DNA from: a virus
Virus record (IMG/VR): IMGVR_UViG_3300024999_000080
Span: 1 to 64,000 of that record
Strand: one strand, 5' to 3'
DNA length: 64,000 nucleotides
Part shown: positions 13,795 through 50,442 of the stretch, in pieces
Position numbering within the stretch: the stretch's first letter is position 1
Layout: each line of letters opens with the position of its first letter
Program-made: the position numbers and the translations under genes
Notes under the pieces: generated by a model
Told to the model about the DNA's origin: nothing
The model's input: only the letters and a program-made list of their open reading frames with translations
Database searches by the model: none

Positions 13795-13820
13795 TAACTT
13801 ATATATAGGAGGTGTTTAAC

Positions 13821-14702
13821 ATGATCAGAAACATAGGATTCGCTTGCATGAGTAAAAAATGCAATACCAAGCACCAAACATTCAGATTGGCATCATTTAG
13901 TGAATACAGATTAAAGCAAGCAATTACTCATAATCTCAAAGAAACTGAGCGAACAATCCAACATTGTATTTCTGAAGGAATTAAATTATTTAGACTAAGT
14001 TCTGATTTAATTCCATTTGCTACGCATGATATTATGAAAGATATTGATTATATGTCTTGGATACAATCTGATCTAAAAAGGATTGGTGGTATAGTAAAAA
14101 ATAATAATATGCTATTATCAATGCATCCTTCTCAAATGTGCTGTATAAACAGCAATAAAGAAGATGTTGTAAATAATTCTATCAAAGATTTGATGTATCA
14201 TTATGATATTCTTAATTCTATGGGGTTGGATAGTTTTAATATTATTATTCATGTTGGTGGTGTTTATGGCAATAAACCGGAAGCAATGAAGAGATTTATT
14301 AATGTATTTAATAGTTTACCTGTAGATTTGAGAAATCATATCTTGCTAGAGAATGATGATAAGAGTTATAATATTAGTGATGTGATGGCAATACACAAGG
14401 AAACTGGAGTTAGAGTTGTGTTTGATTATCATCATCATGTTTGCAATAATGATGGTATAGAATTAGATTTAGAAGCGATATTTGCCACTTGTGGGATTGG
14501 TAATGTGCCTAAGATACATCTTAGTTCACCTAAGAGTATTAAAGAGTTTAGAAGTCATTCTGACATGATTGATTATAAATATTGTAGAGAGTTCTTTGAT
14601 AAGTATAATGGTTTGGAATTTGATGTAATGATTGAGGCGAAGGATAAAGATTTGGCTGTTGATAAGTTTATTGAGGATTATAGGAGGGAGATGAAGAAAT
14701 GA
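13821..14702 (+). CDS. uvsE: UV-damage endonuclease UvsE/UvdE
   Basis: 293 residues, the usual length for the family. TIM-barrel endonuclease that nicks DNA 5' of UV photoproducts. Family features: N-terminal GFACMSKKCNTKHQTFRLA, EGIKLFRLSSDLIP, LSMHPSQMC, IIIHVGG, LLENDDKSYN and VFDYHHHVCN, which supply the His/Asp/Glu metal ligands. ATG 13821 is chosen since AGGAGG (13808-13813) overlaps the upstream GTG. It overlaps the next gene by four bases. A phage copy would repair virion or prophage DNA independently of host UvrABC. Confidence 0.92.
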   Translation: MIRNIGFACMSKKCNTKHQTFRLASFSEYRLKQAITHNLKETERTIQHCISEGIKLFRLSSDLIPFATHDIMKDIDYMSWIQSDLKRIGGIVKNNNMLLSMHPSQMCCINSNKEDVVNNSIKDLMYHYDILNSMGLDSFNIIIHVGGVYGNKPEAMKRFINVFNSLPVDLRNHILLENDDKSYNISDVMAIHKETGVRVVFDYHHHVCNNDGIELDLEAIFATCGIGNVPKIHLSSPKSIKEFRSHSDMIDYKYCREFFDKYNGLEFDVMIEAKDKDLAVDKFIEDYRREMKK

Positions 14703-18403: not shown

Positions 18404-18432
18404 TTGACACAAATTGATAAATAAAGTATACT
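18404..18432 (+). promoter_or_regulatory. Sigma-A promoter with conserved leader (copy 1)
   Basis: TTGACA (18404-18409), 17-base spacer, TATACT (18427-18432). This and the promoter at 22991 share sequence through the leader: the AAAGGATGTGAA box (18474-18485), a 7-codon frame and ACATAACTAA. It drives the DUF2135-like gene through a roughly 150-base untranslated leader. Confidence 0.75.
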
Positions 18433-18491
18433 GAACACAAGGAAAACCAAAGACATTATATGAGTTAAGCATTAAAGGATGTGAAACTAAA

Positions 18492-18515
18492 ATGGGAGTA
18501 AAGATTCATACATAA
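18492..18515 (+). CDS. Leader peptide MGVKIHT (copy 1)
   Basis: A 7-codon frame 12 bases after GGA of AAAGGATGTGAA. The counterpart at 23079 encodes MIKEVYT at the same leader position, and both end ACA-TAA-CTAA. Conserved length, ribosome site and stop context favour translation. It could control the downstream gene by attenuation or ribosome stalling (inference). Confidence 0.45.
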   Translation: MGVKIHT

Positions 18516-18592
18516 CTAAACAAATTTATCTCAATCATGAATCATTTTAAATTAAAACAAATTATAATATAAATATTAGGAGGATGAAAGTA

Positions 18593-20641
18593 ATGAATTT
18601 TAATCAATTTAAAGGTTTAATGCAGGAAAATTTCAAACAAATGGTTAAGGATGCTACTCATTTATTTGAGGTTGATTTAGACAAGGAATTATTGTGGAAT
18701 TTGTATCTCGATAGCTTCCCAGAAGGTACTAATCCAATGTTTAGAAATAGACGAGAATTTGATTGTAGTTGTTGCAGACAATTTATCAAAAACATTGGCA
18801 ATGCAGTTATCATTAAAGATAATAAAATTACAACCATTTGGGACTTTGAAACAAATGATTCTACATTTCAACCAGTAATTAATGCTTTATCTAAATATGT
18901 AAAATCAAAAGTTGTCTCAGATATTTATGTTGCTAAAGAGAAAAAGATTGGAACAGATAAGAACTTTGAAAAGGGTGTAAATGGCAGTATTACTGAATGG
19001 CAACATTTTTATCTTGATCTTCCTGACAAATTTGTAGATCGAAGTGGAAAATCAGAAGGGGATATTAAAGGTGGTTTTAGAGACACACGAAATGTATTCA
19101 AAAGATCATTAGATGAAATTACAGAAGAAAGTTTGCTTACTATACTAGAGCTTATATCTCAGAACAGCCTATACAAAGGCGAAGAATGGAAAGCTGTATT
19201 GACTGAATTCCTTAAATATAAAAAGACATATGATAAACTCAAATCTAATAAAGAAAAAGAAAATTATACTTGGGAACAGTCAGTAAAAGTTGGTGGTTCT
19301 ATTGGTAAGATTAAAAACCATTCAATAGGAACATTGCTTATAAATATAAGTGAAGGAATGGATTTAGATTTAGCAGTTAAGAAATATGAAGCGATAGTGG
19401 CTCCTGAATCATATAAACGCAGTAAACCAATTTACACAAAAAAACAACTAGAAGATGCCAAGAAAACAATTATTGAATTAGGATATATGGATTCAATAAA
19501 TGGTCGTAGATTCGCAAATCCAGATGATATTTCTATAAATAATATCTTATTTTCTAATAAAGATTCTGCTAAGAGAATTAGTGGAATGGATATATTCGAT
19601 GAAATGTCAAGTAATATACCGATTAATCCTAAAAAGTTCTCAAAAGTTGAAGAAGTTTCTATTGATAATTTTATTAAAGATATTTTACCAACAGCCAAAG
19701 AACTTGAAGTATTTTTAGAGAATAAGCATTCTAGCAATATGGCATCATTGATTGCTCCTGAAAGTCGAGACCATAAAACAATGTTTAAATGGAGCAATAA
19801 TTTTTCATGGTCGTACTCAGGAAATATAACAGATAGTTCTATGAAAGAAAATGTTAAATCTGCTGGTGGTAACGTTGAGGGTATTTTAAGATTCTCTATT
19901 CAATGGAATGACAATGAATTTGATGGAAATGATTTAGATGCTCATTGTGTCGAACCAAATGGAAATCTAATTTATTATGGGGATAAAATTAATAGTCGTA
20001 CTACTGGTCAACTAGATATTGATATTCAAAGTCCTAAGAAAAATGTTCCGGCAGTAGAAAATATTACATGGACTAATAAAAATAAAATGCAAGAAGGTAT
20101 TTATAAGTTCTTAGTTCATAACTTTGCTCATCGCGGTGGAAGAGGTGGTTTTAAAGCAGAAATTGAATTTGATGGTCAAATATTCTCTTTTGATTATTCC
20201 AAAGAGTTAAGAAATGGTGAAAAGGTTCAAGTTGCAGAAGTTACTTTTAGTATAGACAAAGGATTTAGTATTGTAGAAAAATTACCATCCAATGTTTCTT
20301 CAAGAGAAGTATGGGGATTAAAAACAAATCAATTTGTACCAATATCAGTTGTATGCTTATCACCTAATTACTGGGATAGTCAACATGGACAAGGTAATTT
20401 ACATTATATGTTCATGCTCAAGGACTGTATTAACCCAGAACAGCCCAATGCCTTTTACGTAGAATTTTTGAAACAGGAATTAGTACCACATAGAAAATTC
20501 TTTGAAGCATTGGGAGCAAAAATGGCAGTAAAAGATGTTTCAGATCAGTTGTCAGGGGTTGGATTTTCATCTACTAAAAGAAATGAATTGTTAGTTAAGG
20601 TTAAAGGTAATATGGAGAGAATGGTTAAAATTAAATTCTAA
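18593..20641 (+). CDS. Large protein with DUF2135/YfaP-like domain
   Basis: 682 residues from ATG 18593; AGGAGG (18578-18583) abuts the upstream ATG 18584, so the later start is used. Residues about 432-555 ([46 protein letters not shown]) match the beta-sandwich DUF2135/YfaP type, often found with vWA proteins. An N-terminal CSCC-x-QF motif near residue 54 may bind metal. Function unknown. It is the first gene of the block leading to the vWA/PP2C/kinase genes and has its own conserved leader, so it may be a structural or substrate partner of that signalling set (inference). Confidence 0.65.
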
Positions 20642-20679
20642 AAATAAAATGATAAAATTTGAAGGAGTGTGTATTTATT

Positions 20680-21078
20680 ATGACAAATGCAAATACTGTA
20701 AACATTTTTGAGGTAGCTACTAGAAACATGTATAGGTTCCCATTTAAGGGCATGAGCAATGTTGAAGATATGTGGCAAATTAGTGTTAAAGAATTGGATT
20801 CTGTTTTCAAGGTTTTAAATTCTCAACTAAAGGAAGTACAAGAGGAAAGTTTGCTTGATGTAAGAACTCAGCAAGATCAAGAATTAGATATCAAAATTCA
20901 AATTATCAAATATATTGTTAAAGTTAAGCAAGAAGAAGCAGAAAAGCAATTGCAAGCAAAAAGTCTAAAAGAACAAAAGCAAAAACTTATGGAAATTTAT
21001 GCATCCAAAAAAGATGAAGATTTGCTGAAAAAGTCACCAGAAGAAATTAAAGCGATGATCGATGCGTTAGATAGTTAA
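20680..21078 (+). CDS. Phage coiled-coil protein
   Basis: 132 residues. N-terminal NIFEVATRNMYRFPFKG and VEDMWQISVKELDSVFKVLN followed by a long coiled coil with many Lys/Glu/Gln matches a widespread family of phage proteins of unknown function. A terminator follows. ATG 20680 sits 12 bases from GAAGGAG. Confidence 0.65.
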   Translation: MTNANTVNIFEVATRNMYRFPFKGMSNVEDMWQISVKELDSVFKVLNSQLKEVQEESLLDVRTQQDQELDIKIQIIKYIVKVKQEEAEKQLQAKSLKEQKQKLMEIYASKKDEDLLKKSPEEIKAMIDALDS

Positions 21079-21101
21079 GGTTTGATTGATTAGATTGATT
21101 G

Positions 21102-21142
21102 AATAAGTAGGGAGGGATAAATTCTCTCCTTGCTTATTTATT
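21102..21142 (+). terminator. Rho-independent terminator
   Basis: Inverted repeat AATAAGTAGGGAG (21102-21114) and CTCTCCTTGCTTATTT (21124-21139) with a short A/T loop and a T-rich end. Ends the 18.4 kb transcription unit. Confidence 0.75.
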
Positions 21143-21183
21143 AAAATGATACACATTACATAAAATATTAAGGAGATATATAA

Positions 21184-21384
21184 TTGAAAACACAACAAGA
21201 TATTTGCAACAAATTAGTTGAGTTGCAAAAAGAAAGAGATAAAGTAAATAAAGATATTAGGTTTTGTATTGATCAACATAATCATAGTTCTGGTATAAAT
21301 TTACACTATAAAAATCTATTAGAATTATTAAATTTTTATAATGGTAAAATATCTTCTTTGAATTGGGTTTTGGAATCAATATAA
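21184..21384 (+). CDS. Small coiled-coil protein
   Basis: 66 residues from TTG 21184 behind AAGGAG. Heptad-like N-terminus (LVELQKERDKVNKDI). Not recognised. Confidence 0.5.
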   Translation: MKTQQDICNKLVELQKERDKVNKDIRFCIDQHNHSSGINLHYKNLLELLNFYNGKISSLNWVLESI

Positions 21385-21399
21385 AAGGAGAAATGTAAA

Positions 21400-21879
21400 T
21401 TGCTAAGAGATGGAGAACCATGTAGTCATAGAGGTTGTTTAAATCATATCTCACATCCTTGTGAGGGTTGTGGAAGGATCAGAGGAAAGAATATAAAGAT
21501 GAAGGAATATAAGTTTAGAGCATGGGAACCGCTAAACAAGGAAATGATTTATTTTGACGGTTTTATTCCATTTAAAATAAGTGATAAATTTATTGAAGGA
21601 GCTTTGAGTTCACAGAATCAAGAGAAAAGATATTTAACAGTTATGAATTATGATGCTATTGAATTGATGCAATTCGCAGGAGTTGATGACTCAAGAGGGT
21701 TGGAAGTTTATGAAGATGATATTCTAGAAATTTGGATTGATGGTATCAAGCAAGATAATTATTATATTGTTGAAGATTCAAGAGAATTATATCTTGAAAT
21801 GAATAGGGATGATTCTTATTATCGTATATCAAAGATTAAAGTTGTAGGTAATAAGTGGGAAAATCCTGAGTTGGCATAA
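21400..21879 (+). CDS. yopX: YopX family protein with N-terminal Cys-rich extension
   Basis: 159 residues from TTG 21400, behind AAGGAG. Residues 7-25 hold CSHRGCLNHISHPCEGCG, a likely zinc site. From residue 34 (MKEYKFRAWEPLNKEMIYF) through GVDDSRGLEVYEDDILEIW and VVGNKWENPELA the chain is a typical YopX. ATG 21499 is the YopX start seen in relatives and could be an internal start; AGAGGAAAG lies upstream of it. The fusion, if real, is unusual. Confidence 0.75.
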   Translation: MLRDGEPCSHRGCLNHISHPCEGCGRIRGKNIKMKEYKFRAWEPLNKEMIYFDGFIPFKISDKFIEGALSSQNQEKRYLTVMNYDAIELMQFAGVDDSRGLEVYEDDILEIWIDGIKQDNYYIVEDSRELYLEMNRDDSYYRISKIKVVGNKWENPELA

Positions 21880-21916
21880 AACAAATATTTTAAGCTATAT
21901 TTTAGGAGGAAAAATA

Positions 21917-22219
21917 ATGCTATGTCTAAGAAATGAAACTTGTCATAAAGATACGTTATTCTGTTGTTATTCGTGTGAAGTGGTATGCTCAACAAAAAAT
22001 GATTGCAATGATGAAGAATGTATAAACAATCCAAATAGTATTATAAATAAAAAAGAGCAAGATATTAAACAAAAAGACGATATTGAATGGTTACTAAAAG
22101 AATTATTAGAAGCAGGTAAATATGCAGAAGTAGACTTTGAGAAAATTACTGAGGTAGCAAGGCGTAACGGATATGAAATTGATGAGGAATTGGATTTAGT
22201 TGAAATTGATACAGAATAA
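21917..22219 (+). CDS. Small Cys-rich protein
   Basis: 100 residues. N-terminal half has seven Cys (CLRNETC, CCYSC, CSTKNDC), C-terminal half is acidic and helical. Behind AGGAGG. Probably metal-binding; not recognised. Confidence 0.5.
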   Translation: MLCLRNETCHKDTLFCCYSCEVVCSTKNDCNDEECINNPNSIINKKEQDIKQKDDIEWLLKELLEAGKYAEVDFEKITEVARRNGYEIDEELDLVEIDTE

Positions 22220-22238
22220 TAAAAGGAGGAAATGAATA

Positions 22239-22304
22239 ATGAGTTATGGACGCAACCCATATTATATTTACAGCAGTGGCAGTGGTACTCTAGCAACAGT
22301 TTGA
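22239..22304 (+). CDS. Putative 21-residue peptide
   Basis: MSYGRNPYYIYSSGSGTLAT-V, behind AAAGGAGG at 9-base spacing. Tyr/Ser/Gly-rich. An overlapping frame from ATG 22232 gives a 34-residue product but has a poor ribosome-site spacing. Low certainty. Confidence 0.35.
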   Translation: MSYGRNPYYIYSSGSGTLATV

Positions 22305-22355
22305 AAACTATATATTCCCATAAAAAACCAATTTGATAGGAAATAGAAATTAAAC

Positions 22356-22385
22356 TTGACTTATTATATCAATTTATGTTATTAT
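22356..22385 (+). promoter_or_regulatory. Sigma-A promoter of the NMNAT gene
   Basis: TTGACT (22356-22361), 18-base spacer, TATTAT (22380-22385), followed by an A/T-rich leader and AGGAGG. Confidence 0.65.
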
Positions 22386-22421
22386 AAATATAGAAATAAA
22401 TATTTTAGGAGGAGAAAATAT

Positions 22422-22973
22422 ATGAAAAAGTATGACGTAGGCTTATTAGTAGGTCGTTTTAATGTATTTCATATAGGACATAAATCACTTGCAGATTTAG
22501 CATTAACCATGTGTGACAGACTATTAATTCTTGTAGGATCTTCACAAGAAAGCGGAACATTGCGTAATCCATTTTATGTATATACGAGAATGGAAATGAT
22601 TAGAGCAATATATCCAGAATCTAATGTGATAATTAAACCATTGCCAGATTTAACAAATGAAAATGATATTACTCCAATTTGGGGTAAATATGTTTTACAG
22701 AAAACTTATGAGATACTTCAAAAATATCCAGATGCTATGATTTACGGGAATGATGAATGTAGGTCTGGGTGGTTTGATCCAGAAGATATCAAAGATATGA
22801 CTGAAATTGTTGTATCTCGTTCTAATATTCTTATTTCTGCCACAGAATTAAGACAACTCATGGTAGATAATAATTGGCAAGAGTGGCGTAAATACCATAG
22901 TCCAGAATTACATCCATATTATTATCCTTTACGATGGGAATTAATGAATTGTGTTGATTATAAAGCTAAATAA
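22422..22973 (+). CDS. NMN/NaMN adenylyltransferase-like nucleotidyltransferase
   Basis: 183 residues. Joins a mononucleotide to AMP from ATP to make NAD or NaAD. Residues 11-20 are GRFNVFHIGH (the family's GRFxPxHxGH), Gly-Ser-Ser-Gln around 39-42 and ISATELR at 138-144 form the nucleotide-binding signature of the NadM/NadR type. ATG 22422 follows AGGAGG. It is followed by a nicotinamidase-like gene, and the window also encodes NAD-dependent ligase, so an NAD supply role is plausible. Substrate preference (NMN or NaMN) cannot be told from sequence. Confidence 0.85.
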   Translation: MKKYDVGLLVGRFNVFHIGHKSLADLALTMCDRLLILVGSSQESGTLRNPFYVYTRMEMIRAIYPESNVIIKPLPDLTNENDITPIWGKYVLQKTYEILQKYPDAMIYGNDECRSGWFDPEDIKDMTEIVVSRSNILISATELRQLMVDNNWQEWRKYHSPELHPYYYPLRWELMNCVDYKAK

Positions 22974-22990
22974 AATTATTCAAAATGCAC

Positions 22991-23020
22991 TTGACAAACA
23001 ATCAATAAATAATGTATACT
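22991..23020 (+). promoter_or_regulatory. Sigma-A promoter with conserved leader (copy 2)
   Basis: TTGACA (22991-22996), 18-base spacer, TATACT (23015-23020). The -10 is within a small inverted repeat (ATGTAT / ATACAT). Leader shares AAAGGATGTGAA (23060-23071) and ACATAACTAA with copy 1. Confidence 0.75.
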
Positions 23021-23078
23021 TAATACATGGTTAAGTTAAAACATTACATAAATTATTGAAAAGGATGTGAATCAAGAC

Positions 23079-23102
23079 ATGATCAAAGAGGTATATACAT
23101 AA
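23079..23102 (+). CDS. Leader peptide MIKEVYT (copy 2)
   Basis: 7-codon frame at the same leader position as MGVKIHT at 18492, behind the same AAAGGATGTGAA box and ending in the same ACA-TAA-CTAA. It precedes the nicotinamidase-like gene by 70 bases. Confidence 0.45.
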   Translation: MIKEVYT

Positions 23103-23172
23103 CTAATTTACATTGTTCTCTAATCCTTATTAAATACAAAAATAAAATTATAATGAAAGAAGGAAATTAAAA

Positions 23173-24081
23173 ATGAATACACGTTATGAAGAAATCGTAG
23201 ATGTACAAGCAATTGGAGTAGCACAAAACACTCGAAGTCTTAATGAAATTCTTGCAAAAGCAAATCAAGAAAAACTTCAACCTGCATCTAAAAATGTTGA
23301 GCAAGTATTGGTAATCGGAATAGACATCCAGAACGATTTTTTAGAGCAGGGAGCTTTAGCAGTACAAGGCAGTCATGGAGATACAGAAAGATTTACAAAA
23401 TTCATTTACGACAATATGGATAAAATTGCTCAAATTGCTGTATCAATTGACACTCATAACCCATTCCAAATTTTTCATCCTTGTTGGTGGGTAGATGCAG
23501 ATGGTAACAATCCTCCTCCATTCACACCAATTACTTTAAAAGATTTAGATGATGGAAAATGGTTTCCTGTAGTAGATCCAATGAAAAGTCGTAAATATGT
23601 TGAAGGATTAGAAGCAAAGGGTAAAAAGAATTTGTTAATTTGGACATATCATTGTCTTCAAGGTACTCATGGTGCAGCATTAGAAAATCAATTTGCAAAT
23701 ATGGTTTATTTTCACTCAGTTGCTAAGAAAACAATGGTTAATCGAATTGTTAAAGGAACAGATTATTTTAGCGAGATGTATGGAATATTTGCTCCAGAGT
23801 TTGATGAAAAAGGATTTATTAACCTTGATGTTTTGAATAAGATGGCTAAGTTTGATAAAATTGTAATCGGAGGTCAGGCTAGTGATTTCTGTTGTTATGA
23901 GAGTATTAAACAGTTACTAGAGTTTCACAAGAGTAATTCTGAACTTTTGAAAAAGGTATTCATTCTAGAAGATTGCATGTCTGCTGTGATGGATACTCCT
24001 GAACAAAGTAAAACTCGATATGATGAATTGAAGAAAGTATATAAAGTTAATATTGTAAAATCAACAGACTTAGTTCTTTAA
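23173..24081 (+). CDS. Nicotinamidase/isochorismatase-like cysteine hydrolase
   Basis: 302 residues, about 100 longer than typical nicotinamidases. Catalytic triad candidates: Asp51 (IDIQNDF), Lys184 (RIVKGTD) and Cys230/Cys231 (GGQASDFCCYES). Metal ligands resemble nicotinamidase: Asp93-x-His95 (SIDTHN) and His102 (FHPCWW). Nicotinamidase would turn nicotinamide into nicotinic acid for NAD resynthesis, in line with the NMNAT upstream. The extra length lies mainly between residues 108 and 180 and at the N-terminus. Isochorismatase-type chemistry on another substrate is possible. Confidence 0.75.
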   Translation: MNTRYEEIVDVQAIGVAQNTRSLNEILAKANQEKLQPASKNVEQVLVIGIDIQNDFLEQGALAVQGSHGDTERFTKFIYDNMDKIAQIAVSIDTHNPFQIFHPCWWVDADGNNPPPFTPITLKDLDDGKWFPVVDPMKSRKYVEGLEAKGKKNLLIWTYHCLQGTHGAALENQFANMVYFHSVAKKTMVNRIVKGTDYFSEMYGIFAPEFDEKGFINLDVLNKMAKFDKIVIGGQASDFCCYESIKQLLEFHKSNSELLKKVFILEDCMSAVMDTPEQSKTRYDELKKVYKVNIVKSTDLVL

Positions 24082-24134
24082 TAGTTTGATAAGATATAAA
24101 AATAAAATAAATTTAAGAAATGAGGAATATTAAA

Positions 24135-24806
24135 ATGGCAGACGTAATGGATATTTTAGGTATGGATGAAATGGAACAAGAAAATACTTCTATGGACGAT
24201 CTAAATAGTGAAAACATTAATTTAATCTTTATTGCAATTGATGAATCAGGTTCAATGGGTGGTTACATTAATGATATGAAGAAAAATCTTTCAGAGTTTA
24301 AAAGTGCATTAACTGATAGTAAAGAATCGGATGAAATGTTAGTGGCTAGAGCTAATTTCCATGATAGCAACATTGATATTGGAGGATATAAAAAGATTGA
24401 AGAATTTGATACAGCTTATAATGTGTACGGTATGACTCCATTATATGATGTAGTTGTTGAAGGTTCGGAGAAATTAGTCAATTATATGACTTACTTAAAA
24501 AATCAAGGAATGCGTGTTAAAGCTGTATTTGCAGTATTCTCAGATGGAGAAGACACAAGTTCTAAAAACAGCATTAGTCAGGCCAAAAATGTTATCACAG
24601 ATCTGAATAGTAAAGAGGTAACGACTGCATTCATTAGTTTTGGTTCAAGTGCTATGAGAGAAGCAAAGAATATGCAATTTAAAAATATTCTTCAGGTTGG
24701 ATCTTCTGCTAGTGAATTGCGTAAAGCATTTGATTGTCTATCTAAATCAGTTATTGAAAGTTCAAAATCAGTAGTTGCTCAAGCAGATGATTTCTTTACA
24801 ATGTAA
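24135..24806 (+). CDS. von Willebrand A domain protein, TerY-like
   Basis: 223 residues. Complete MIDAS: DESGSMG (Asp36, Ser38, Ser40), the Thr in YGMTPLYD and the Asp in FSDGEDTSS. It has the cytoplasmic vWA form with no signal peptide. Together with the next two genes (PP2C, protein kinase) it matches the vWA-phosphatase-kinase arrangement called the TerY-P triad. ATG 24135 is used (GAGGA upstream) rather than 24120. Confidence 0.8.
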   Translation: MADVMDILGMDEMEQENTSMDDLNSENINLIFIAIDESGSMGGYINDMKKNLSEFKSALTDSKESDEMLVARANFHDSNIDIGGYKKIEEFDTAYNVYGMTPLYDVVVEGSEKLVNYMTYLKNQGMRVKAVFAVFSDGEDTSSKNSISQAKNVITDLNSKEVTTAFISFGSSAMREAKNMQFKNILQVGSSASELRKAFDCLSKSVIESSKSVVAQADDFFTM

Positions 24807-24823
24807 TATGTAATAATTTAATT

Positions 24824-24857
24824 GACTAGTCCTGTTTGAAATATAGCAGGACTAGTC
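24824..24857. promoter_or_regulatory. 11-bp inverted repeat (terminator or operator)
   Basis: GACTAGTCCTG (24824-24834) and CAGGACTAGTC (24847-24857), perfect, 12-base loop. No T-run follows. Each arm contains the palindrome GACTAGTC, so a dimeric protein could also bind. It separates the vWA and PP2C genes. Confidence 0.55.
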
Positions 24858-24874
24858 ACAAATAGGAGGAAATA

Positions 24875-25498
24875 ATGTTTATTAATAAAATTGGATATCT
24901 TCATTTAGAAAAAGGATTGAATTGTCAAGATTTTGGTTTTGAGAGTGACAAGCATAAATGTATAATGGACGGTTGTTCAGAAGGAAAACATAGCGAAGTT
25001 GGTGCTAAATTATTTGCACATATGTTTTCAAAAGGATTAGATCCAATTGAATGTTTTGAAAAGTTGTCTGGTATATTTCCTGATTACGAGGATATAAGAG
25101 ACCATATGTTATTTACTGTATTATTCGTTTCCCAAACTGATGAAGAATACATAGTTGATATTTGTGGTGATGGATACATAATTAAGCAAAAACTTGATGA
25201 TTCGATTGAGTATGAAAAAATAGGAGAAGGTAATGCTCCAGAATATTATGCTTATAATTTTGTTTCTTCAGATCGTTTGAATAAGTATAAAGATGGTGTT
25301 GAATTCAAACATCACCTACTATCTAAAAGCGAATATAAGGCCGTAGGAGTGGCATCTGATGGCTTAGATTACATTCTTAATAGTCCTTTTAAGGATGAGT
25401 TTGAAAAGCATTTAATAGGAAGAAAAGAATTTGCAATCCGAAGACTAATCAATCGAGAACATAAATATTTTAAGGATGATATTTCAATTGTAATTTGA
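24875..25498 (+). CDS. PP2C-family serine/threonine phosphatase
   Basis: 207 residues, a short PP2C. Metal-binding acids in order: CQDF, MDGCSEG (motif DG), CGDGYI, ASDGLDY and terminal DDISIVI. Such proteins remove phosphate from Ser/Thr. Its stop (25496-25498) lies just before the kinase gene's ribosome site, so phosphatase and kinase are co-translated. Middle partner of the TerY-P-like triad. Confidence 0.82.
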   Translation: MFINKIGYLHLEKGLNCQDFGFESDKHKCIMDGCSEGKHSEVGAKLFAHMFSKGLDPIECFEKLSGIFPDYEDIRDHMLFTVLFVSQTDEEYIVDICGDGYIIKQKLDDSIEYEKIGEGNAPEYYAYNFVSSDRLNKYKDGVEFKHHLLSKSEYKAVGVASDGLDYILNSPFKDEFEKHLIGRKEFAIRRLINREHKYFKDDISIVI

Positions 25499-25512
25499 TT
25501 GAGGTGAAAGTG

Positions 25513-27216
25513 ATGAATATAAGTGCTAAAATTCTAAAACAAACTCCATTAGCTGAAGGTGGAGAAGGTATTATATATGATTTAGGGGATAATGTTCTTA
25601 AGGTCTATAAAGATTCGGTTGATAAGCAAGAAAAATTAAAAAAGGTTAAATTGTTGATATCTAAATCTTTACCTTCAAATATTATCAAACCTATTGATAT
25701 TGCTTATGATTCACAGAAAAAGTTTATTGGTTATATTATGCCGAAAGCAGAAGGTGAAGACGTTAAGAAATTAGGCAATAAGAAATATGTTAAAGTAAAT
25801 AATATTAAAATCCAAGACATTAGTAAATTAGCATTAAAAATAAAAGAAACTCTCACAATTTTACATAATCAAAACATTCTTATCAGCGACTTAAATGATG
25901 GCAATATATTATTCACCAAGGATTTTGAACCATATTTTATTGATGTTGATAGTTGGTCTATTGATAATATTAATTGTACAGTTTGTATGGAAACATTTAA
26001 AGATCCTAAATTAGTTTCCAGTAATTTCACTAAAGATACTGATTCATTTTCATTTGCTGTGTTATTATTTAAGATGCTGACAAGACTTCATCCCTTCGGA
26101 GGAACAATGAATCCAGATATGGATATTATTCAAAGGATGAGTAAGGGCATATCAGTAATCGAAAATTCAAAAGTTATTGTTCCAAAGAATATTAATAAGT
26201 GGGAATTTATGTCTCCAAAATTACTTACGGATATGAGAAGTATTTTTGAAAAAGGAAAAAGGTTTTTAATAGATCAAAATTTGTTGGATTTTGCTTCAAA
26301 TTTGAAGTATTGTGATAAACATGAAGATTATTATTATAGCAAGTACAAAACGTGTCCTATTTGTGATGTAAGTGCTGTAATAATTCAAGCTCCTATACAA
26401 GTTGTTGGGAATGGATCTATTCCTTATATTGTTCTAATTGCTTCAAATGGTGTGAAAATGATATTAAATCTTGATACATTTATTGATGATAATGATTTTG
26501 TAATTCATAGCAGATCAAAGAAAAAAGTAGAATTAGTTAATGGTAATAGATATTATTTTTCTAATGATGGAGATATTGCTTTCACAGTTTCAAATATGGA
26601 TATTGGCGTTAGTAATCAAAAAGGAACATTTATATTTGAGAAAATTAATAAGAGTAATGTTGTCGTGAAGAATGATATTATTTACTATATTAATTCAAGT
26701 TGTAATCTTGTGGAATTGACTGTAGGTGATATTGGCAACTCATTAAGGGTAATTACTAAAACTTCTTTTAATTCATTTTTTGAAGTGTATGATAAAGACA
26801 ATTATCTAGTTTGTAATATTTATGATGGTTTTAAAATTGTCAACATTAGTGGATATAATTATCAGATTAATGACAATGATAAAATTGTTAATTATGGTAT
26901 ACACTTCGACACTATAAAGAATTTATGGTTATTTATTACTGAGGATGATAAAGGTAACTTTAAGACATTGATTTTTGATAAGAATAAAGTAGTTTACAGT
27001 AGCGATAGTATAAAGTATCAAACTGATCTAGGGAATTTATGTTTTAGTGGTGGGGTAATATTTAGCCCTAGTGATAAGGTTATTAGAGGATTTGGTTACG
27101 AGAAGAATGTTTATAAGGATTTTCCTTGTGATGTGGTTAATGATGGATCTAAGTTAATTAGAGATGGTAGCAAGTTTATTGTGATTAATGATAAAGAAGT
27201 TTATAGGTTGGGTTAA
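25513..27216 (+). CDS. Protein kinase with zinc ribbon and C-terminal beta-rich domain
   Basis: 567 residues from ATG 25513 (GAGGTGA upstream). Gly loop AEGGEGIIYDL, VAIK-like Lys in VLKVYKD, catalytic loop SDLNDGNIL (about residue 125), metal-binding DVDSW in place of DFG, then DTDSFSFAVLLFKMLTRLHP. Residues 266-285 hold a zinc ribbon (C-x2-H, CPIC). The rest is repetitive, beta-rich and may form a propeller. This kinase-plus-zinc-ribbon form is the kinase of TerY-P triads. It probably phosphorylates a partner such as the vWA protein, with the PP2C reversing it. Confidence 0.85.
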   Translation: MNISAKILKQTPLAEGGEGIIYDLGDNVLKVYKDSVDKQEKLKKVKLLISKSLPSNIIKPIDIAYDSQKKFIGYIMPKAEGEDVKKLGNKKYVKVNNIKIQDISKLALKIKETLTILHNQNILISDLNDGNILFTKDFEPYFIDVDSWSIDNINCTVCMETFKDPKLVSSNFTKDTDSFSFAVLLFKMLTRLHPFGGTMNPDMDIIQRMSKGISVIENSKVIVPKNINKWEFMSPKLLTDMRSIFEKGKRFLIDQNLLDFASNLKYCDKHEDYYYSKYKTCPICDVSAVIIQAPIQVVGNGSIPYIVLIASNGVKMILNLDTFIDDNDFVIHSRSKKKVELVNGNRYYFSNDGDIAFTVSNMDIGVSNQKGTFIFEKINKSNVVVKNDIIYYINSSCNLVELTVGDIGNSLRVITKTSFNSFFEVYDKDNYLVCNIYDGFKIVNISGYNYQINDNDKIVNYGIHFDTIKNLWLFITEDDKGNFKTLIFDKNKVVYSSDSIKYQTDLGNLCFSGGVIFSPSDKVIRGFGYEKNVYKDFPCDVVNDGSKLIRDGSKFIVINDKEVYRLG

Positions 27217-34059: not shown

Positions 34060-34683
34060 ATGAGTTTTATTGAAAATGTTTCAAATTATTCTGCTAGGTG
34101 GTTGGCATCAAAAGTACCTAATGATAAATATCCTACAGTAGAAGATCAAATTGAGGTTTTTACCTATGGTTTTATGGTTATATGGGGATTTATATTTAAG
34201 ATCATATTGATGGTATCATTAGCATATATCTTTAATATTATAATCCCTATTATAATATTAACATTGACTTTCAGTAGTTTAAGAATTATCGCAGGAGGAT
34301 ACCATTTAAAGACCTATAATCGCTGTATGATTATTAGTGCTTTGCAATTCATTGTATCAGCATTAATAATCAAACACACATATCAATATTGGCCTATCCA
34401 AAACATCTATTCTCTGCTATTCTTTTGTGTATTAACGACACTATATATAATCTTCAGATATATTCCAAGAGACACACCCAACAAACCCATTATAGACCCT
34501 TTACAGATTAAAAAGTTTAAACGATGGTCATTATACTACCTTATCGCATGGACAGTTGTAATGACCATCTTCCTACTGTTTAATGTACATATAATTGTAA
34601 TTGCAAGTTGTTTTGGGTTATTGTTGGAGCTTTTTAGTGTGGGTAGAATAGGGCAATCGATATACTCTAAGCTAGATTCATAA
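34060..34683 (+). CDS. agrB: AgrB-family peptide-processing membrane protease
   Basis: 207 residues with about six hydrophobic segments. The catalytic signature RIIAGGYHLKTYNRC contains His82 and Cys89 at the H-x6-C spacing of AgrB, which cleaves AgrD and forms its ring at the membrane. ATG 34060. Transcribed from the 33.16 kb promoter with the XRE-MazF gene. In most loci agrD follows agrB; here a Shine-Dalgarno and ATG follow but the frame closes at once. Confidence 0.88.
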   Translation: MSFIENVSNYSARWLASKVPNDKYPTVEDQIEVFTYGFMVIWGFIFKIILMVSLAYIFNIIIPIIILTLTFSSLRIIAGGYHLKTYNRCMIISALQFIVSALIIKHTYQYWPIQNIYSLLFFCVLTTLYIIFRYIPRDTPNKPIIDPLQIKKFKRWSLYYLIAWTVVMTIFLLFNVHIIVIASCFGLLLELFSVGRIGQSIYSKLDS

Positions 34684-34703: not shown

Positions 34704-34727
34704 AAAAGGAGGTGATGTTTTATGTGA
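34704..34727 (+). other. Vestigial agrD start downstream of agrB
   Basis: AAAAGGAGGTGA (34704-34714) then ATG-TGA (34722-34727): a strong ribosome site whose start codon is immediately followed by a stop. It matches the AAAGGAGGTGA ribosome site of the intact agrD at 32962 and occupies the usual agrD position, so it looks like an agrD remnant, lost when the following endonuclease gene arrived (inference). Confidence 0.45.
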
Positions 34728-48355: not shown

Positions 48356-48414
48356 TTGACAATATGGATTCACTTGTAGTATAATTATGGTAGAGGTGCA
48401 AATGAATCCATATT
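48356..48414 (+). promoter_or_regulatory. Sigma-A promoter of ligA within a 12-bp inverted repeat
   Basis: TTGACA (48356-48361), 18-base spacer, TATAAT (48380-48385). AATATGGATTCA (48361-48372) is in the spacer and its exact reverse complement TGAATCCATATT (48403-48414) lies downstream of the start point, so the -10 region is bracketed by the repeat. It could be an operator with DNA looping. Confidence 0.65.
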
Positions 48415-48438: not shown

Positions 48439-50442
48439 ATGGATGAAAATATTCAAATGCAAGAATTGGTCAAGAAGTTAAACAAACACTCTTACGAATA
48501 TTATACTCTCAGTAACCCAAGTATATCAGACTCAGAGTTCGACCTTTTATATCGAAAGCTAGAAGCCTTAGAGGCGAAATTAAATTACATATTGCCTGAC
48601 AGTCCGACACAAAGAATTGGTGATATTGTCTTAGATAAATTTGAAAAGCATGAGCATAAGTTTAGACTCTATTCAATGGATAAAGCACAGAACATGGATG
48701 AACTTGATACATGGCATAATAAAAATAAATCATTTGTAAAACAAAATAATTTACCTGAGATTCAATATGTTGTAGAGAAAAAGTTTGACGGGTTATCAAT
48801 TAATAATACTTACAAAGGCGTGTTGTTATCTTCTGCAACTAGGGGAACCGGTGGAATCAAAGGTGAATTAGTCACAGCACAAGTAAAAACAATCAAATCA
48901 ATTCCATTAAGTATTGATAGTAATATTTTATTAGAAGTTCATGGTGAAGCTTATATGAGAAAAAGTGTATTCAATAAATATAATGAAACTGCTAAAATTC
49001 CTTTAAAAAATGTAAGAAATGGAGCATCAGGAGCAATCAAGAATTTAGACGTAAAGGAAACTGCTAATAAAAATTTAGATGCTTTCTTTTATGATATTGG
49101 ATACAGCGAAGGATTAAAATTCAATACTTACATGGAAATGATGGAATTTATCACAAAAATGGGATTACCAGTTGATCAAGATTATTATCTTTGTAATACC
49201 ATTGAAGAAGTTAAAGAAAAAATTGCTTTAATTGAAGAACTAAGACCAAACCTAGATTATGAAATTGATGGAGCAATAGTAAGTATTAATGATATCAAAA
49301 CAAGAGAAGCAATGGGATTCGCTACAAAGTTTCCTAGATGGGCAATTTCATTTAAATATGAATCAGAAGAAACAACAACAGAATTATTAGATATTGAATT
49401 TAGAACAGGTCGTACAGGAAAAGTAACCCCTAGAGGAACTTTAGAGCCTGTAGACTTAATGGGTTCGACTGTTTCTTATGCAACTCTAAACAGCATGGAT
49501 GATATTAAGAAGAAAGGGGTAAAAATCAATGCAACAATATTTATTCGAAAGTCTAATGACGTGATCCCTGAGATATTAGGAGTTGTAGAAGATAGTGTTA
49601 CGGATGATATGCCTGATATTAAAATGCCAACACATTGTCAATCATGTGGAAGTGAATTAGTACAAGATGGAGTTCATTATTTTTGTAGAAACTCATTGAA
49701 TTGTAAAGCACAAATTGTAAAATCAATAGCTCATTTTGGTACTTTGCAAGCAATGAATATTGATGGATTTAGTGAGCAAACTGCGTTACTTTTTGTTGAG
49801 AATGGAATTATTAGTAATGTTTTAGATTTGTTTAGTTTGGAAAGCAAAAAGGATAAGATTATTAAACTACCCAAATTTGGAGTTAAGAAATATAACAATC
49901 TGATTCAAGCAATTGAAAATTGTAAGAAGGTTAAATTAGAATCCTTTGTTTACGGATTAGGTATTGAAGGTGTTGGACTTGGGGGATCAAAGAATCTATG
50001 TAAGCATTTTAATAATGATATTGCTCTGATTATGACTGCAAATTTAAGCGAGTTATTAGCAGTAGATGATTTTGGCCCAATTACGGCAGAAAATGTTTAT
50101 AATTATTTTATGGATGATAATAATTATTTGCAAACAATTGAATTATTAGGTCATATTGAAATTAAAAAAGAAGAAAAGAAGGAAGTGGTTAATGTGAGTG
50201 ATAGTTTTTTTAAAGGCAAAACTACGTACTGTACTGGAACTTTTGAATCATATAAAAAGGAACAGTTAAAAGCAATATTAGAAGATTTAGGAGCAACGTT
50301 TGCAAATGGATTTACAAAATCTCTTGATTTCTTAATTGTAGGTAAAATGAAAGGTTCTTCGAAAGTCGAAAAAGCTATTAAAGCAAATATTCCTGTTTTG
50401 AGTGAAGATGAGTTTTTAGCAATTATTGGAGGGGTAAAATAA
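48439..50442 (+). CDS. ligA: NAD-dependent DNA ligase LigA
   Basis: 667 residues, full length. Domain Ia (1-70), adenylation with Lys115 in KFDGLS, RGTGGIKGE, LDYEIDGAIV and KFPRWAISFKYESEE; OB fold with RTGRTGKVTPRG; zinc finger C-x2-C...C-x5-C (about 399-421); helix-hairpin-helix repeats with VYGLGIEGVG; and a C-terminal BRCT domain (about 588-665). It seals nicks using NAD and releases NMN. Most phages carry ATP-dependent ligases, so this is a notable choice, coherent with the NAD genes at 22-24 kb. Stop overlaps the next start. Confidence 0.95.
   Translation: MDENIQMQELVKKLNKHSYEYYTLSNPSISDSEFDLLYRKLEALEAKLNYILPDSPTQRIGDIVLDKFEKHEHKFRLYSMDKAQNMDELDTWHNKNKSFVKQNNLPEIQYVVEKKFDGLSINNTYKGVLLSSATRGTGGIKGELVTAQVKTIKSIPLSIDSNILLEVHGEAYMRKSVFNKYNETAKIPLKNVRNGASGAIKNLDVKETANKNLDAFFYDIGYSEGLKFNTYMEMMEFITKMGLPVDQDYYLCNTIEEVKEKIALIEELRPNLDYEIDGAIVSINDIKTREAMGFATKFPRWAISFKYESEETTTELLDIEFRTGRTGKVTPRGTLEPVDLMGSTVSYATLNSMDDIKKKGVKINATIFIRKSNDVIPEILGVVEDSVTDDMPDIKMPTHCQSCGSELVQDGVHYFCRNSLNCKAQIVKSIAHFGTLQAMNIDGFSEQTALLFVENGIISNVLDLFSLESKKDKIIKLPKFGVKKYNNLIQAIENCKKVKLESFVYGLGIEGVGLGGSKNLCKHFNNDIALIMTANLSELLAVDDFGPITAENVYNYFMDDNNYLQTIELLGHIEIKKEEKKEVVNVSDSFFKGKTTYCTGTFESYKKEQLKAILEDLGATFANGFTKSLDFLIVGKMKGSSKVEKAIKANIPVLSEDEFLAIIGGVK

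What the first reader, a model, noticed from the sequence alone, without database searches (positions are those of the whole stretch)
18404..18515. First of two near-identical promoter leaders with a 7-codon frame
Promoter, AAAGGATGTGAA box, a 7-codon ATG frame and ACATAACTAA recur at 22991-23102 (MGVKIHT versus MIKEVYT). The surrounding bases differ more than the signals do, implying selection on the leader rather than recent copying. It precedes the DUF2135-like gene and the nicotinamidase-like gene.
Basis: seen in the sequence. Interest (0 to 1): 0.65.

Follow-up and report, generated by a model that had tools for sequence, protein, structure and literature searches.

The report
Twin 7-codon leader cassettes in phage
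A family of related phages places the same promoter-plus-tiny-reading-frame leader in front of two operons, and the frame's ribosome-binding site, start, exact seven-codon length and stop signal are conserved while most of the encoded amino acids are not, so the leader probably works by holding a ribosome near the start of the message rather than by making a useful peptide.

Summary
Both leaders are where stated: sigma-A-type promoter, AAAGGATGTGAA, ATG, seven codons, ACATAACTAA. Eight more copies occur in seven related phage contigs, ten in all, always before the same two genes. In every copy the 12-nt box is invariant, the ATG lies 5-8 nt after it, and the frame is exactly seven codons ending [C/T]AT-ACA-TAA. 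Codons 2-5 drift like non-coding DNA (46% identity within the first type). The box is an extended Shine-Dalgarno sequence, which ordinary genes of these phages also use. The stop context TAA-C (9 of 10) is absent from 57 TAA-ending window ORFs. There is no conserved RNA structure, no Rfam match and no copy found outside this clade. The window's second leader is a mosaic: its promoter half matches the first type and its frame half the second, so copying or recombination did occur. The gene after leader 1 shows no DUF2135 match; its weak model resembles TerD. The operon after leader 2 starts with a nicotinamidase-like gene. Best reading: a translated leader minicistron that keeps a ribosome near the 5' end and so raises or stabilises two co-regulated operons. 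Translation is well supported; the mechanism is inferred.

The parts
18404..18432 (+). Leader 1 promoter, TTGACA-17-TATACT; start of transcription expected near 18440
   Evidence: aligned in ten copies
18474..18485 (+). Leader 1 box AAAGGATGTGAA, extended Shine-Dalgarno sequence of the seven-codon frame
   Evidence: 12 of 12 columns invariant in ten copies; used before ordinary genes
18492..18515 (+). Leader 1 seven-codon frame MGVKIHT*
18508..18519 (+). Leader 1 tail ATACATAACTAA: last bases of the frame, stop codon and +4 C
18593..20641 (+). Gene after leader 1 (phrog_1735, 682 aa, possible TerD-like domain); Shine-Dalgarno AGGAGG at 18578-18583
22991..23020 (+). Leader 2 promoter, TTGACA-18-TATACT; start of transcription expected near 23028
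23060..23071 (+). Leader 2 box AAAGGATGTGAA
23079..23102 (+). Leader 2 seven-codon frame MIKEVYT*
23095..23106 (+). Leader 2 tail ATACATAACTAA
23173..24081 (+). Gene after leader 2, nicotinamidase-like, followed by vWA-like (24120), PP2C (24875) and kinase (25513) genes

Best explanation
The two leaders are copies of one cis-acting leader minicistron. A sigma-A promoter makes a message with an unusually long, unstructured 5' UTR of about 150 nt. A ribosome binds the extended Shine-Dalgarno box about 35 nt from the 5' end, starts at the ATG, reads seven codons and stops at UAA in a weak context (UAA-C). Repeated loading and slow release keep a ribosome on the 5' part of the message, shielding it from 5'-end decay and keeping it open, so that the real gene, which starts some 50-80 nt after the stop with its own Shine-Dalgarno site, is expressed strongly. 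The peptide itself does not matter. The same leader on two operons would make a possible TerD-like gene and a nicotinamidase/vWA-like/PP2C/kinase operon respond together. Shown by sequence: conserved parts, fixed frame length, drifting peptide, use of the box as a Shine-Dalgarno site elsewhere. Inferred: translation, slow termination, message stabilisation, co-regulation.
For: Ten copies, all seven codons, while the box-to-ATG spacer takes four lengths (5-8) and the stop-to-gene distance varies. Box 12/12, ATG 3/3 and codon 6 to stop 8/9 columns invariant; codons 2-5 only 1/12. The 12-column invariant run has permutation p about 0.0006 among six representative lineages, at 52-66% identity of four-fold sites of the first gene. 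The box pairs with the 16S tail and precedes ordinary genes at 4-5 nt in the window (16079) and in relatives. +4 C in 9/10 frames against 0/57 TAA-ending ORFs of the window and 3/58 in relatives; +4 C is a documented inefficient termination context (PMC5289835). No terminator between frame and gene and no conserved fold. Other strong promoters of this phage that directly precede genes have leaders of about 25-46 nt. A relative (L011) has a strong 5' stem-loop (z -3.4) before the same gene instead, another classic stabiliser design. Bound ribosomes stabilise Bacillus ermC, gsiB, aprE and phage SP82 messages (PMC7509114).
Against: No expression, ribosome-profiling or decay data. Copies share ancestry, so ten are not ten independent tests; about six lineages. 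The central T of the box is always a mismatch to the 16S tail (a G there would pair far better), so the box may serve more than ribosome binding or be tuned to moderate strength. Nucleotide-level conservation of ATACATAACTAA could be a binding site for something other than the ribosome. Weak termination at +4 C is documented for other organisms and mostly for UGA, not for this host, which is unknown.
Confidence: 0.42

Rival explanations
1. A conditional sensor: ribosomes pause at the conserved end (His/Tyr, ACA, UAA-C) when a tRNA, release factor or metabolite is limiting, and the pause raises or lowers expression of the downstream operon.
For: Nucleotide-level conservation of the last two codons, stop and following bases while codons 2-5 drift; unusual +4 C; both operons look stress- or NAD-related; short regulatory uORFs with extended Shine-Dalgarno sites are known in Staphylococcus aureus, including near-identical prophage ones (PMC13009471).
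Against: No run of repeated codons, no terminator and no alternative conserved RNA structures; the downstream Shine-Dalgarno site lies tens of nt beyond the stop, too far for a paused ribosome to cover it directly.
Confidence: 0.25
2. A duplicated promoter module whose box and tail are DNA or RNA binding sites for a phage regulator; the open frame is incidental.
For: Promoter and UTR are copied with the frame; box and tail contain short mutually complementary pieces (AUGUG/UACAU, seen in the sequence); nucleotide-level tail conservation beyond the stop.
Against: Box-to-tail distance varies by 1-3 nt while ATG-to-stop never does; the box alone precedes ordinary gene starts as a Shine-Dalgarno site.
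Confidence: 0.2
3. A bar-type minigene: efficient translation of a very short frame drops peptidyl-tRNA-Thr, draining one host tRNA and slowing host translation.
For: Very short frame, good ribosome-binding site, invariant last codon ACA, rare as last codon of ORFs (2 of 76); lambda bar minigenes are described as acting by peptidyl-tRNA accumulation and tRNA starvation (cited in PMC8012679).
Against: Seven codons is long for drop-off (general knowledge); the frames sit in leaders of specific operons rather than as free transcripts; ACA is a common Thr codon in this phage (152 of 364).
Confidence: 0.07
4. The peptide acts in trans (signal, toxin or modified heptapeptide like microcin C).
For: Seven residues, start always ATG.
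Against: Codons 2-5 differ freely between copies (46% within the first type, 35% between types); no export signal is possible in seven residues.
Confidence: 0.03

Closest known systems
5' ribosome-binding stabilisers of Bacillus messages (STAB-SD, aprE, gsiB, ermC, phage SP82)
   Same: A Shine-Dalgarno site in the 5' leader whose occupation by ribosomes stabilises the message; one example is from a phage (PMC7509114)
   Different: Those need ribosome binding but not always a start codon or frame; here ATG, seven codons and stop are all conserved
Regulatory uORFs and leader peptides of Firmicutes (rbfL; near-identical uORFs of Staphylococcus prophages phi11 and phi12; PMC13009471)
   Same: Very short frame with extended Shine-Dalgarno site upstream of a gene; a near-identical pair in phages
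   Different: rbfL overlaps the gene's own ribosome site and senses arginine; the prophage uORFs are followed by terminators; neither is so here
Phage lambda bar minigenes (cited in PMC8012679)
   Same: Phage-borne, very short, efficiently initiated frame
   Different: bar frames are much shorter and are not leaders of particular operons (from general knowledge)
Amino-acid attenuators
   Same: Leader frame between promoter and operon
   Different: No terminator hairpin, no repeated codons, no conserved RNA structure here

Membership tests
Translated leader uORF (minicistron) | Ribosome-binding site, start codon and in-frame stop conserved as a unit among relatives | tested here: met
   Ten of ten copies
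Translated leader uORF (minicistron) | Actual translation | not testable with these tools
   No profiling data; supported indirectly by frame conservation and use of the box as Shine-Dalgarno elsewhere
Transcription attenuator / leader-peptide attenuator | Terminator or alternative hairpins after the frame | tested here: not met
   No terminator-like site in either leader; fold z-scores around zero, near-zero consensus fold
Riboswitch or other Rfam element | Match to a curated covariance model | tested here: not met
   No match at gathering score; only weak sub-threshold matches
Conserved bioactive peptide | Amino-acid sequence conserved | tested here: not met
   Codons 2-5: 1 of 12 columns invariant
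5' ribosome-binding mRNA stabiliser | Loss of the ribosome site shortens message half-life | not testable with these tools
   Anatomy fits; no decay data
Phage bar-type minigene | Expression drains a tRNA through peptidyl-tRNA drop-off | not testable with these tools
   Only the short frame and invariant last codon were seen
DUF2135 (gene after leader 1) | Match to PF09906 | tested here: not met
   No match at E 1 in the whole record or in Pfam at E 10
TerD (gene after leader 1) | TerD fold | tested here: inconclusive
   Four TerD or TerD-like chains among the six best Foldseek hits, E 0.001-0.0066; model mean pLDDT 67
Nicotinamidase (gene after leader 2) | Sequence match to solved or curated nicotinamidases | tested here: inconclusive
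   PDB nicotinamidase E 1.1e-8 with profile; NF008623 E 2.5e-9 but below its cut-off

The most novel reading that the evidence does not exclude
A phage regulon of two stress/NAD operons controlled by a leader frame whose peptide is free to vary: only length, start and a weak stop signal are selected, so that the dwell time of a terminating ribosome, not the peptide or an RNA fold, sets expression.
Probability: 0.2. Interest if true: 0.6.

Novelty: new variant of a known kind. Interest (0 to 1): 0.36.

Why it matters
It is a natural experiment in which the peptide of a leader frame drifts while its length, start and stop context stay fixed, in paired copies controlling two operons of one phage. 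That separates 'translation as such' from 'peptide' as the working part, and gives a simple testable system for ribosome-mediated control of phage messages.

Tried and rejected
Rfam: nothing convincing. Conserved RNA fold, including box-tail pairing: not predicted by MFE or consensus fold. Wider distribution: looser viral scans gave only copies already known plus chance matches, mostly inside coding sequence; a scan of the genome-contig collection gave none, with the caveat that it required the exact box and tail pattern; the three genome contigs carrying the first gene showed no such leader by eye. One viral scan was wasted on a wrong frame length. The sequence model found no convincing third copy in the 230 kb relative or elsewhere; its first look scores only 150 candidates per record. 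More distant relatives of the two genes have other upstream regions. Three literature calls failed on characters the tool does not take and were not repeated in that form. Microcin-C-like and trans-acting peptide readings were dropped because codons 2-5 are not conserved; no search for a modifying enzyme was made.

Full report
Observation. The two leaders are present exactly as described. Leader 1: TTGACA-17-TATACT at 18404-18432, box AAAGGATGTGAA 18474-18485, frame 18492-18515 MGVKIHT*, tail to 18519. Leader 2: TTGACA-18-TATACT at 22991-23020, box 23060-23071, frame 23079-23102 MIKEVYT*, tail to 23106. Box and ACATAACTAA each occur exactly only at these two places in the window. The genes begin at 18593 and 23173.

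Relatives. The window lies in a 76,877-base virus record. Searches with the two proteins and with the leader pattern gave eight further copies in seven IMG/VR contigs of samples 3300024999 and 3300025309. The 230 kb relative carries two, before the same two genes. No other copy turned up in viral contigs with looser patterns, including one that allowed frames of other lengths, nor in the genome-contig collection. More distant relatives of the genes have different upstream regions.

What is conserved. In all ten copies the box is identical, the ATG is 5-8 nt away, the frame has seven codons and ends [C/T]AT ACA TAA. Codons 2-5 have one invariant column in twelve and 46% identity within the first type. 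Anchored at the stop, ATACATAA is in all ten and the next four bases CTAA each in nine of ten; conservation then falls away. Four-fold sites of the first gene are 52-66% identical between the compared phages, so this is not mere closeness. A 12-column invariant run among six representative lineages has a permutation p of about 0.0006. Because copies are related, all counts overstate independence.

Box. AAAGGATGTGAA pairs with the 3' end of 16S rRNA apart from a central T; replacing it by G would strengthen the computed pairing from -11.3 to -17.9 kcal/mol. The same or nearly the same box stands 4-5 nt before ordinary ORFs in the window (16079) and in relatives. It is therefore most likely a Shine-Dalgarno sequence type of this phage group.

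Stop. C follows the stop in nine of ten frames but in none of 57 TAA-ending ORFs of at least 80 codons on the + strand of the window and 3 of 58 in relatives. +4 C is a documented inefficient context, best known for UGA (PMC5289835).

Structure. Leaders fold no better than shuffles (z from -1.5 to +1.6) and have no consensus fold; no terminator lies between frame and gene. A relative, L011, has a strong stem-loop (z -3.4) upstream of the same gene instead.

Origin. The window's second leader is a mosaic: before the box it resembles first-type leaders (mean identity difference +0.195, 95% 0.07 to 0.32), after the box second-type leaders (-0.223, -0.36 to -0.08). L004 and L033 share leaders that are 94-96% identical although four-fold sites of their genes are 66% identical.

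Genes. The first gene is phrog_1735, of unknown function. DUF2135 is not found. A low-confidence model (mean pLDDT 67) gives TerD or TerD-like chains as four of its six best Foldseek hits: a lead, not a finding. The second is nicotinamidase-like and is followed by vWA-like, PP2C and kinase genes (the vWA label rests on reading the sequence, since Pfam gave no vWA match). An NMN-adenylyltransferase-like gene precedes leader 2.

Mechanism. The simplest account is a translated minicistron whose ribosomes protect or open the 5' part of the message, as known for several Bacillus messages and phage SP82 (PMC7509114). A pausing sensor and a regulator-binding site are the main rivals. A bar-type minigene and a trans-acting peptide are less likely. 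Translation, slow termination and any effect on expression are inferences; the host is unknown.

Noticed in passing
window 34060-34683 and 34705-34725: An AgrB-family gene (PF04647, E 3.4e-35) followed by a near-perfect Shine-Dalgarno sequence and ATG-TGA, a start directly followed by a stop, where an AgrD precursor would be expected.
   Followed up: partly
window 48361-48414: A 16-nt inverted repeat (94% complementary, 22 nt between the arms) overlaps the promoter of a DNA-ligase-like gene at 48439; it could be an operator.
   Followed up: partly
L011 5855-5995: A related phage has a strong two-tier stem-loop leader (z -3.4) before the same gene in place of the seven-codon cassette.
   Followed up: partly
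window 18593-27216: A possible TerD-like protein plus vWA-like, PP2C and kinase genes and two NAD-salvage-like genes: a possible phage-borne Ter-type stress module.
   Followed up: partly
L163, L176, L194; L144 with L174: Records with a 13-codon truncated copy of a gene start (MLNIYITNLGKYN/D*) a few hundred nt from a longer copy (MLNIYITNLGKYNEGELIGE...).
   Followed up: no
window 13812-14702: UvdE-type UV endonuclease gene (PF03851, E 3.3e-64).
   Followed up: no
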